Below are positions 62,808 through 64,000 of a stretch of DNA of 64,000 bases, piece after piece. The translations under genes and the position numbers were made by a program. Under the pieces are notes generated by a model. It worked only from the letters and a program-made list of their open reading frames with translations. It had not been told where the DNA came from and searched no databases. Source of the DNA: Sulfitobacter sp. DFL-14 (GTDB taxonomy: Bacteria; Pseudomonadota; Alphaproteobacteria; Rhodobacterales; Rhodobacteraceae); NCBI RefSeq assembly GCF_003335585.1, contig NZ_QBFD01000001.1, positions 1 through 64,000 of the forward strand, written 5' to 3'. Position 1 is the first letter of the stretch. Each line of letters begins with the position of its first letter.

Positions 62808-63644
62808 CTAGTCGAACCGGGCTTGAAAGCTCGTCGGCGTCAGGGTGACATGGTGATCCAGCGGGGGGCGGAGCTCGAAAGCTCTTGGCCCCCGCGCGTT
62901 GTTGTAAATCCTGAAGAGATGCCAGATATCCCTGTTCTCATCCGCCACACGCAGTTCATTTTGTGAGATATGGAACGGTGTGCGATCCCAGCCATTTGTC
63001 GTTTTGACCTCAAGCAGGCGAGGGGTGCCGTCAGGCGTGAAGCTGGAAATGTCGTAGCCCGCGCCGTCGCCCTGAACATCACTGGTCCACTCCACTTTGT
63101 CAGCGAGGTCGTTTCTTCCTGCATCCCTGAGGGTGGCGCGTTCATGGGCCAGGGCACGTTCTTCGCCCAGCCGTCCGAGCGCGCGATTGCGTTCATCGCG
63201 CCCGGCAGCGTCAAAACGTTGCGCCGTGGCGGTCAATTTCTTCAGACCGCGGGGTGGCGGTTCGTTGCGCATGTGCGGCGGGGTGACAAGTTCAATCGTA
63301 TCAGTGGAATATATCGCCTGAGGTTCCGCGAAACCGGAAAGCGGCATGATGCCACGGTTTGAAGTCAGCCACCGCGCGACCGCGTCCTCCAGTGACGTCT
63401 GGTAGTGCGCATTGGGTGCGTATCCGGGGAGCCAGATTTCTCCGGCACCCATAAGCACGCCACTGATGTTCATGTGCTTCCGCTCGATCGACGTTTCGGT
63501 GCGCTCGTTGATCTCCTTGATCTGCGCTAGCAGCGCGCGTCTGTGTTGAGACTTGTTGGGAGTGGCGCCGGAGAGAACCATACGGAACATGGCGAAGTAG
63601 TCCGCCACGATCAGGTCGTTCTCTTCGTCAGTCCAGTCCACCAT
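62808..63644 (-). CDS. DUF3883 domain protein (predicted restriction-like nuclease fold)
   Basis: A 278-aa protein. The N-terminal part (WTDEENDLIVADYFAMF; RALLAQIKEINERTETSIER) resembles the helical region seen with HNH or DUF3883 proteins of accessory regions. The C-terminal DUF3883 domain has GDGAGYDISSFTPDGTPRLL followed by EVKTT, giving the D...E-x-K pattern of PD-(D/E)xK nucleases. Such proteins are often found in defence or mobile regions. It lies 126 bp from a tRNA-Cys fragment. Activity and target are unknown. Confidence 0.78.
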   Translation of the reverse strand: MVDWTDEENDLIVADYFAMFRMVLSGATPNKSQHRRALLAQIKEINERTETSIERKHMNISGVLMGAGEIWLPGYAPNAHYQTSLEDAVARWLTSNRGIMPLSGFAEPQAIYSTDTIELVTPPHMRNEPPPRGLKKLTATAQRFDAAGRDERNRALGRLGEERALAHERATLRDAGRNDLADKVEWTSDVQGDGAGYDISSFTPDGTPRLLEVKTTNGWDRTPFHISQNELRVADENRDIWHLFRIYNNARGPRAFELRPPLDHHVTLTPTSFQARFD

Positions 63645-63769: not shown

Positions 63770-63813
63770 TGGAGGCGAGTACCGGAATCGAACCGGTGTA
63801 CACGGATTTGCAA
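63770..63813 (-). other. tRNA-Cys 3' fragment, probable attachment-site scar
   Basis: Read on the minus strand it gives the anticodon loop with GCA (63811-63809), the 3' side of the anticodon stem, a T-arm ACCGG-TTCGATT-CCGGT, the 3' acceptor strand, discriminator T and an encoded CCA, all as in tRNA-Cys. The match stops at the 5' edge of the anticodon loop: the next bases cannot pair to form the anticodon stem, and no D-arm follows. Integrases that use tRNA genes leave exactly such a 3' copy at the far end of their element. Confidence 0.8.
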
Positions 63814-63886
63814 GAGTATCTAAGAGACTGTTTTGAATTGATAAAGTGTTTAGATTGCCGTCGAGAATCGGAGGAACATATCAAGA

Positions 63887-64000
63887 ATGTTTAGACGTGG
63901 AAGGGTTGTCGCGCGAAGTGGTGCAAACGAGAGCAGAGCAACGCCATCCGTCAATGAAAAGACGACTTCTCGGCGCCCGTTGTCGGCCCTAAGCCGACAT
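63887..64000 (+). CDS. Possible partial CDS running off the window
   Basis: An open frame of 38 codons from an ATG preceded by GGAGGA, continuing to the window end. The product begins MFRRGRVVARSGANESRATP and is basic; no domain is recognised. A perfect 7-bp inverted repeat (TGTCGGC...GCCGACA, 63981-63999) lies inside it, so it may not be a gene. Composition here differs from the core genome to the left. Confidence 0.25.
   Translation, partial: MFRRGRVVARSGANESRATPSVNEKTTSRRPLSALSRH

What the first reader, a model, noticed from the sequence alone, without database searches (positions are those of the whole stretch)
63770..63813. tRNA-Cys 3' end without a 5' half marks one border of an integrative element
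The fragment holds anticodon loop (GCA), T-arm, acceptor 3' strand and CCA, and ends abruptly where the 5' anticodon stem should begin. tRNA-targeting tyrosine integrases leave the intact tRNA at one border and only this 3' repeat at the other. From the orientation the element should lie to the right (above 63813) and native chromosome to the left. That would put DUF3883 just outside the element or in a neighbouring older insertion.
Basis: partly seen in the sequence, partly recalled or inferred. Interest (0 to 1): 0.65.

Follow-up and report, generated by a model that had tools for sequence, protein, structure and literature searches.

The report
Mini defence island at tRNA-Cys
The orphan tRNA-Cys tail marks the edge of a small mobile DNA element that carries a two-gene anti-virus system and belongs to a family of marine-bacterial elements of similar size that carry different, mostly defence-like, cargo.

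Summary
An intact tRNA-Cys(GCA) lies 5.5 kb to the right on the same contig (69296-69369). Between them sit a tyrosine integrase, a 57-aa ORF and a SIR2-HerA pair matching anti-phage models. The closest relative compared (G007) lacks the insert at this site; DUF3883 lies outside it. The repeat is not exact: 38 of 44 bases match, the differences being three compensatory T-stem pairs. Relatives of the integrase lie beside tRNA-Cys or its 3' half in 40 of 43 fetched loci. Of 22 elements with both ends, 21 are 4.9-5.9 kb (elements much over 10 kb could not be seen). The 21 analysed in detail share the small ORF, the integrase and TCTAAACA-type repeats at the ends but differ in cargo; 14 of 21 strongly match defence models. 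Two elements of the window's genus share an 87-98% identical backbone with unrelated cargo. Integrase-only defence islands are a known class; my searches found no description of this family. How it moves is unknown. Against simple crossover in the anticodon loop: G007 carries the intact gene's T-stem, not the fragment's.

The parts
63770..63813 (-). attR: displaced 3' half of tRNA-Cys(GCA), T-stem ACCGG/CCGGT, ending in CCA
   Evidence: sequence; single copy in the genome; 38/44 to the intact gene
63814..64000 (.). right end of the integrative element as far as the window reaches, including the attR arm. The rest lies beyond the window on the same contig (C1, same numbering), all on the minus strand: HerA-like ATPase 64085-65893, SIR2-like protein 65895-67142, tyrosine integrase 67426-68433, 57-aa ORF 68426-68599, left-arm repeats 69228-69247, intact tRNA-Cys(GCA) = attL 69296-69369
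   Evidence: absent from empty-site relative G007; GC falls from 0.61 to 0.43-0.47; conserved right end in the 21 elements aligned; parts beyond the window: HerA PADLOC E 7.1e-165, SIR2 E 2.1e-57, integrase Pfam E 4.8e-19, 57-aa ORF, repeats, tRNA
63847..63854 (-). putative arm-type site TCTAAACA (inner, right arm)
   Evidence: one of only four copies in the first 82 kb of the contig, all at the element ends
63888..63895 (-). putative arm-type site TCTAAACA (outer, right arm), within GTCTAAACATTC-N4-TATGTTC-like block
62808..63644 (-). DUF3883/NOV_C gene (PADLOC candidate PDC-S36), flanking DNA outside the element
   Evidence: 65% identical homologue beside tRNA-Cys at the same place in element-free G007

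Best explanation
The fragment is the attR of a 5.5-kb integrative element inserted into the tRNA-Cys(GCA) gene by its own tyrosine integrase. The element consists of a mobility platform (att core, two TCTAAACA repeats on each side, a 57-aa ORF overlapping the integrase, and the integrase) plus one exchangeable cargo, here a SIR2-HerA anti-phage pair. Shown by sequence: both borders, the empty site in a relative, the conserved platform and the changing cargo in relatives. Inferred: the integrase binds core and arm sites and crosses over in the anticodon-loop region near TTGCAAA, so that the element's own 3' half restores the tRNA; the 57-aa ORF helps integration or excision; SIR2-HerA protects the host by an NAD-depleting abortive response (general knowledge of such pairs, not tested here). 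No transfer gene was recognised, so the element probably moves in a helper's particle or as DNA taken up by the cell.
For: Intact tRNA-Cys at the predicted place and orientation with an integrase between the repeats. Empty site in G007. TCTAAACA occurs four times in the first 82 kb of the contig, all at the element ends; in 21 elements 69 exact copies fall in 6.0 kb of arm windows against 0.09 expected, and 3 elsewhere in 232 kb. Integrase relatives: 32 of 43 loci beside an intact tRNA-Cys and 8 more beside its 3' half. The 57-aa ORF is in 21 of 21 elements. GC is below the rest of the locus in 21 of 21. PADLOC SIR2 and HerA matches. Backbone shared with G040 at 87-98% but cargo unrelated. Anticodon-centred sites restored by an element-borne fragment are a standard island class (passages of PMC4383910).
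Against: The two repeats differ in three T-stem pairs. With a crossover in the anticodon loop the fragment's allele (ACCGG) should be the pre-insertion one, yet the element-free relative G007 has AGGAG. The link between T-stem allele and occupancy in the genus is weak (Fisher p 0.02 as scored, 0.08 after reclassifying two genomes). Exact TCTAAACA is missing on the right side in 3 of 21 elements and single on the left in 3. Excision, transfer and defence were not observed. 7 of 21 elements have no strong PADLOC match.
Confidence: 0.92

Rival explanations
1. Same element, other crossover: strand exchange lies at the 3' end of the tRNA (T-stem/acceptor junction or beyond), so the intact gene is wholly chromosomal and the fragment's T-arm belongs to the element. 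(Compatible with the rest of the best explanation.)
For: The element-free sister G007 has the same AGGAG allele as the intact gene of G000; both elements with this backbone (G000, G040) have an ACCGG fragment. T-stem/junction sites are about as common as anticodon sites (PMC4383910 passages).
Against: In the 21 right ends aligned, identity to the tRNA starts at the same base in the anticodon loop and runs to CCA (my search pattern began at GCAAATCC, which favours such ends), and a 3'-end crossover gives no reason for that. The AGGAG/ACCGG allele changes at least 6 times on the genus tree, 8 most parsimoniously, with a single ACGAG intermediate among those loci, which suits block replacement.
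Confidence: 0.2
2. The fragment is a decayed pseudogene or duplication remnant, not an att site.
For: Stray partial copies do occur, e.g. a perfect 3' half 1.1 Mb from the tRNA in G014.
Against: Perfectly paired T-arm, correct orientation, integrase, arm repeats and an empty site in a relative.
Confidence: 0.02
3. The element is a fixed relic that keeps its defence gene pair but no longer moves. (Compatible with the best explanation of its origin.)
For: The two repeats differ at six bases; no transfer genes recognised.
Against: The integrase ORF and arm repeats are intact; the related element in G040 has the same backbone with different cargo; the sister G007 lacks it.
Confidence: 0.25
4. DUF3883 and SIR2-HerA form one larger island and 63770 is an internal border.
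For: DUF3883 is itself a defence candidate (PDC-S36) and part of it differs from that of G007; G014 has the hut genes near tRNA-Cys without a DUF3883 match in the stretch fetched.
Against: No third tRNA-Cys remnant to the left; DUF3883 sits beside tRNA-Cys in element-free G007 and just outside the fragment in G057.
Confidence: 0.06

Closest known systems
tRNA-gene genomic islands with tyrosine integrase (Islander class, PMC4383910; passages seen)
   Same: Regenerated tRNA at one end, displaced 3' fragment at the other, integrase inside, tandem arrays; fragment starting in the anticodon loop
   Different: Here a narrow size range in the elements seen, one tRNA-Cys target, and T-stem alleles that differ between the two ends in G000 and G040
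Integrase-only defence islands of E. coli (PMC10121019; passages seen)
   Same: Integrase plus defence genes, no other mobility genes known, mode of transfer unclear
   Different: Other hosts; here one integrase family with a conserved small ORF, conserved end repeats and similar length
PICMI satellites of Vibrionaceae (PMC10803314; passages seen)
   Same: Marine, about 6 kb, few genes, a small gene overlapping int (iolg, needed for excision there)
   Different: No alpA or primase match here; target is tRNA-Cys, not fis; no helper known
tmRNA islands moved by jumbo phages (PMC12595487; abstract, outline and one section seen)
   Same: Integrase, direct repeats, phage-defence cargo, no genes for autonomous transfer
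   Different: Those range from under 20 kb to over 70 kb and often carry alpA, RadC and others
P4/P2 defence hotspots (PMC9122126; passages seen)
   Same: High-turnover slot of about 1-5 kb with different defence systems between conserved genes
   Different: Here the slot makes up most of the element; no phage or satellite structural genes recognised

Membership tests
tRNA-targeting integrative island | Intact tRNA at one border, 3' fragment at the other, correct orientation | tested here: met
tRNA-targeting integrative island | Tyrosine integrase between the borders | tested here: met
   Pfam and PHROGs
tRNA-targeting integrative island | Empty site in a relative | tested here: met
   G007
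tRNA-targeting integrative island | Excision and circularisation | not testable with these tools
   needs PCR or long reads
SIR2-HerA defence system | Adjacent SIR2-like and HerA genes | tested here: met
   PADLOC E 2.1e-57 and 7.1e-165, genes 1 bp apart as listed
SIR2-HerA defence system | Protects against phage | not testable with these tools
   needs plaque assays
PICMI phage satellite | Integration at fis | tested here: not met
   target is tRNA-Cys
PICMI phage satellite | alpA and primase genes | tested here: not met
   no Pfam match among the four main ORFs or ten small ORFs of the element; PHROGs likewise gave no alpA or primase match
Phage satellite in general | Induction and packaging by a helper phage | not testable with these tools
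   no helper known; best-ranked integrase hit in 50,697 phage records is 36.7% identical
Integrase-only defence island | Integrase plus defence genes, no other mobility genes recognised | tested here: met

The most novel reading that the evidence does not exclude
A dedicated family of minimal hitch-hiking elements in Roseobacter-group bacteria: a mobility platform of about 2 kb that swaps single defence systems in a slot of about 3 kb, held near 5.5 kb by a packaging limit (helper capsid, concatemer unit or particle), and rewriting the T-arm of the host's tRNA-Cys each time it integrates.
Probability: 0.3. Interest if true: 0.75.

Novelty: new variant of a known kind. Interest (0 to 1): 0.5.

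Why it matters
Integrase-only defence islands are a recognised class whose mobility is unexplained (PMC10121019 passages). This family offers one integrase type, one target, exact ends, conserved end repeats and about 20 natural cargo variants, so mobility, size limits and cargo exchange become testable. Cargo of unassigned function between the fixed ends is a source of defence-gene candidates.

Tried and rejected
Considered and rejected: a chance tRNA-like match; a third, older tRNA-Cys border left of DUF3883 (none above chance in the window); a PICMI-type satellite (no alpA or primase match, target not fis). My prediction that the nearest element-free relative would carry the fragment's ACCGG T-stem failed: G007 has AGGAG. 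The outermost fragments of tandem arrays did not settle the crossover model: G040's array runs AGGAG, ACCGG, AGGAG, ACTGG. The allele-occupancy test is weak. A packaging limit set by Rhodobacterales gene transfer agents does not fit simply: RcGTA carries about 4 kb (PMC6854486 passages), less than one element; a look for sizes in PMC7947584 found none. All hits of the integrase in the phage and plasmid collections are below 60% identity. The 57-aa ORF model (mean pLDDT 79.7, pTM 0.55) is a helix and hairpin, which does not look like an Xis winged helix; no fold search was run on it.

Denominators. Of 43 integrase loci fetched, 20 gave both ends with this integrase; with G000 and G040 that makes 22. 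Seven loci had 8 kb or more of cargo side but no second end, 15 are cut by contig ends, and L156 has a fragment with a one-base insertion about 6.9 kb from a second one, which my pattern did not pair. L141's pair was dropped because its integrase is 37% identical. L136 was dropped from the detailed set of 21 because its left end is cut. 39 of 44 cargo ORFs of 150 aa or more in the other 20 elements of that set were given to PADLOC. PADLOC matches of generic ATPases (PARIS, Septu, HEC-01) cross-react, so system names there are best-hit labels. The tree used 43 of 55 flanks of the genus, those with PCMT adjacent. In some searches my fragment pattern had the wrong spacing; one search is the corrected run.

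Full report
Observation. The minus strand of 63770-63813 is the 3' half of a tRNA-Cys, from the anticodon loop to CCA, with a fully paired T-arm. No complete tRNA is in the window, and the sequence, with up to 3 mismatches allowed, occurs once in the genome.

The other border. The window is bases 1-64000 of contig C1 (104,507 bases). An intact tRNA-Cys(GCA) lies at 69296-69369 on the same strand. The 44-base repeat matches at 38 positions; the six differences form three compensatory T-stem pairs. The distance between repeats is 5,526 bp. GC falls from about 0.61 left of the border to 0.43-0.47 over 64001-67000.

Content. Between the borders lie, all on the minus strand of contig C1, a HerA-like ATPase (64085-65893), a SIR2-like protein (65895-67142), a tyrosine integrase (67426-68433) and a 57-aa ORF (68426-68599). 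PADLOC models give E 7.1e-165 for HerA and 2.1e-57 for SIR2. The integrase has the usual R, K, HxxR and Y positions by eye (motif recalled, not computed). Ten further small ORFs match nothing in Pfam or PHROGs. I recognised no transfer, capsid, alpA or primase gene; the HerA ORF has weak matches to FtsK-like, coupling-protein and terminase models, as HerA-type ATPases do.

Empty site. G007 is the closest relative among the loci compared (PCMT 92%, hutU 98%; sister on the flank tree). Its DNA aligns with G000 through the tRNA and then with the DNA left of 63770, through DUF3883 into hutU. This confirms the insertion and places DUF3883 outside it. DUF3883 is itself a candidate defence gene (PDC-S36, E 6.3e-105).

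The family. A scan of genome contigs with the integrase gave 39 loci and a scan of viral contigs gave 4; the genome records are named as Roseobacter-group genera, Rhodobacteraceae or Alphaproteobacteria. An intact tRNA-Cys is next to the integrase in 32 of 43 and a tRNA-Cys 3' half alone in 8 more; in the other 3 the integrase lies within about 0.4 kb of a contig end. Contigs of Sulfitobacter records match G020 and G036 by length, so I call the window's genus Sulfitobacter. Twenty-two elements had both ends: 21 are 4,927-5,877 bp and one is 7,953 bp. The range partly reflects the 10-kb flank: 7 further loci had 8 kb or more of cargo side and no second end.

Platform. In 21 elements aligned, TCTAAACA repeats sit at near-identical positions from both ends: 69 exact copies in 6.0 kb of arm windows against 0.09 expected, and 3 elsewhere in 232 kb. 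Every element has at least one exact copy on the left and 18 of 21 on the right; the rest have variants. In G000 the only four copies in the first 82 kb of the contig are these. Such repeats on both sides of a core look like the arm-type sites of lambda-like integrases (general knowledge; binding not tested). The 57-aa ORF is in 21 of 21, at 49% identity or more, directly upstream of or overlapping the integrase start. The integrase module occurs in either orientation.

Cargo. By PADLOC, 14 of 21 elements have a cargo match at E below 1e-10: SIR2-HerA twice, Septu, PARIS twice, Olokun, Dsr1, a UG5-nitrilase reverse transcriptase, a type IIG enzyme, NsnA/PD-T4-2, HEC-01, HEC-06/Orf5, PDC-S06 and PDC-S73. 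Four have weak matches only (L133, L150, L152, L153). Three have none: L128, L130 (LysR, DUF481, SNase by Pfam, so perhaps not defence) and L162, which has a NACHT domain by Pfam. The G000 and G040 elements are 87-98% identical in backbone but have unrelated cargo, which points directly to cargo exchange. Conversely G000 and L166 share SIR2-HerA cargo (66% in DNA) on backbones whose integrases are 76% identical.

T-stem alleles. In this genus the 5' half of tRNA-Cys hardly varies, but the T-stem is mostly AGGAG or ACCGG. The allele changes at least 6 times on a flank tree. Outside the genus AGGAG is rare: by my count of the list, 8 of 392 genomes, in a search that allowed 3 mismatches to the AGGAG gene. 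A likely reason is that integration replaces the T-arm, but G007 speaks against the simplest form of this, and the allele-occupancy association is weak. I leave the direction open.

Literature. Islander (PMC4383910) describes the border signature and anticodon-centred sites (passages). E. coli integrase-only defence islands (PMC10121019, passages), PICMIs (PMC10803314, passages), tmRNA islands (PMC12595487, abstract, outline and one section) and P4/P2 hotspots (PMC9122126, passages) are the nearest kinds. A 2026 paper on Sulfitobacter mobile elements (PMC13386836, passages) centres on plasmids and in the passages seen does not mention this family. None of the titles and abstract starts listed by searches names it; those lists were capped and the library holds open-licence papers only.

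Verdict. The element is a member of a known class and of a tidy family that I could not find described. The constant platform, similar size and changing, mostly defence-like cargo are the interesting part; mobility and function remain inferred.

Noticed in passing
window 62808-63644: DUF3883 gene: its 3' part and hutU are 91% identical in DNA to G007, but about 390 bp further towards its N-terminus do not align, which suggests exchange of part of a defence candidate.
   Followed up: partly
Sulfitobacter-genus genomes: 22 of 62 genomes carry two or more tRNA-Cys 3' halves; G040 and G035 have arrays of four and three with alternating T-stem alleles. tRNA-Cys is an integration hotspot for several integrase types.
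   Followed up: partly
L129, L130, L131, L150, L152: Five elements share a related protein of about 210-225 aa (125 aa in L131); the L130 and L152 copies match staphylococcal nuclease domains; its role is unknown.
   Followed up: no
L141, L146, L149, L156, L161, L167, L168: Integrase relatives next to a tRNA-Cys 3' half whose 5' side is not tRNA, hinting at tandem or secondary integration sites.
   Followed up: no
G014 C1:2470411: A perfect 44-base tRNA-Cys 3' half lies 1.1 Mb from the tRNA and on the other strand, perhaps through an inversion or a secondary insertion.
   Followed up: no
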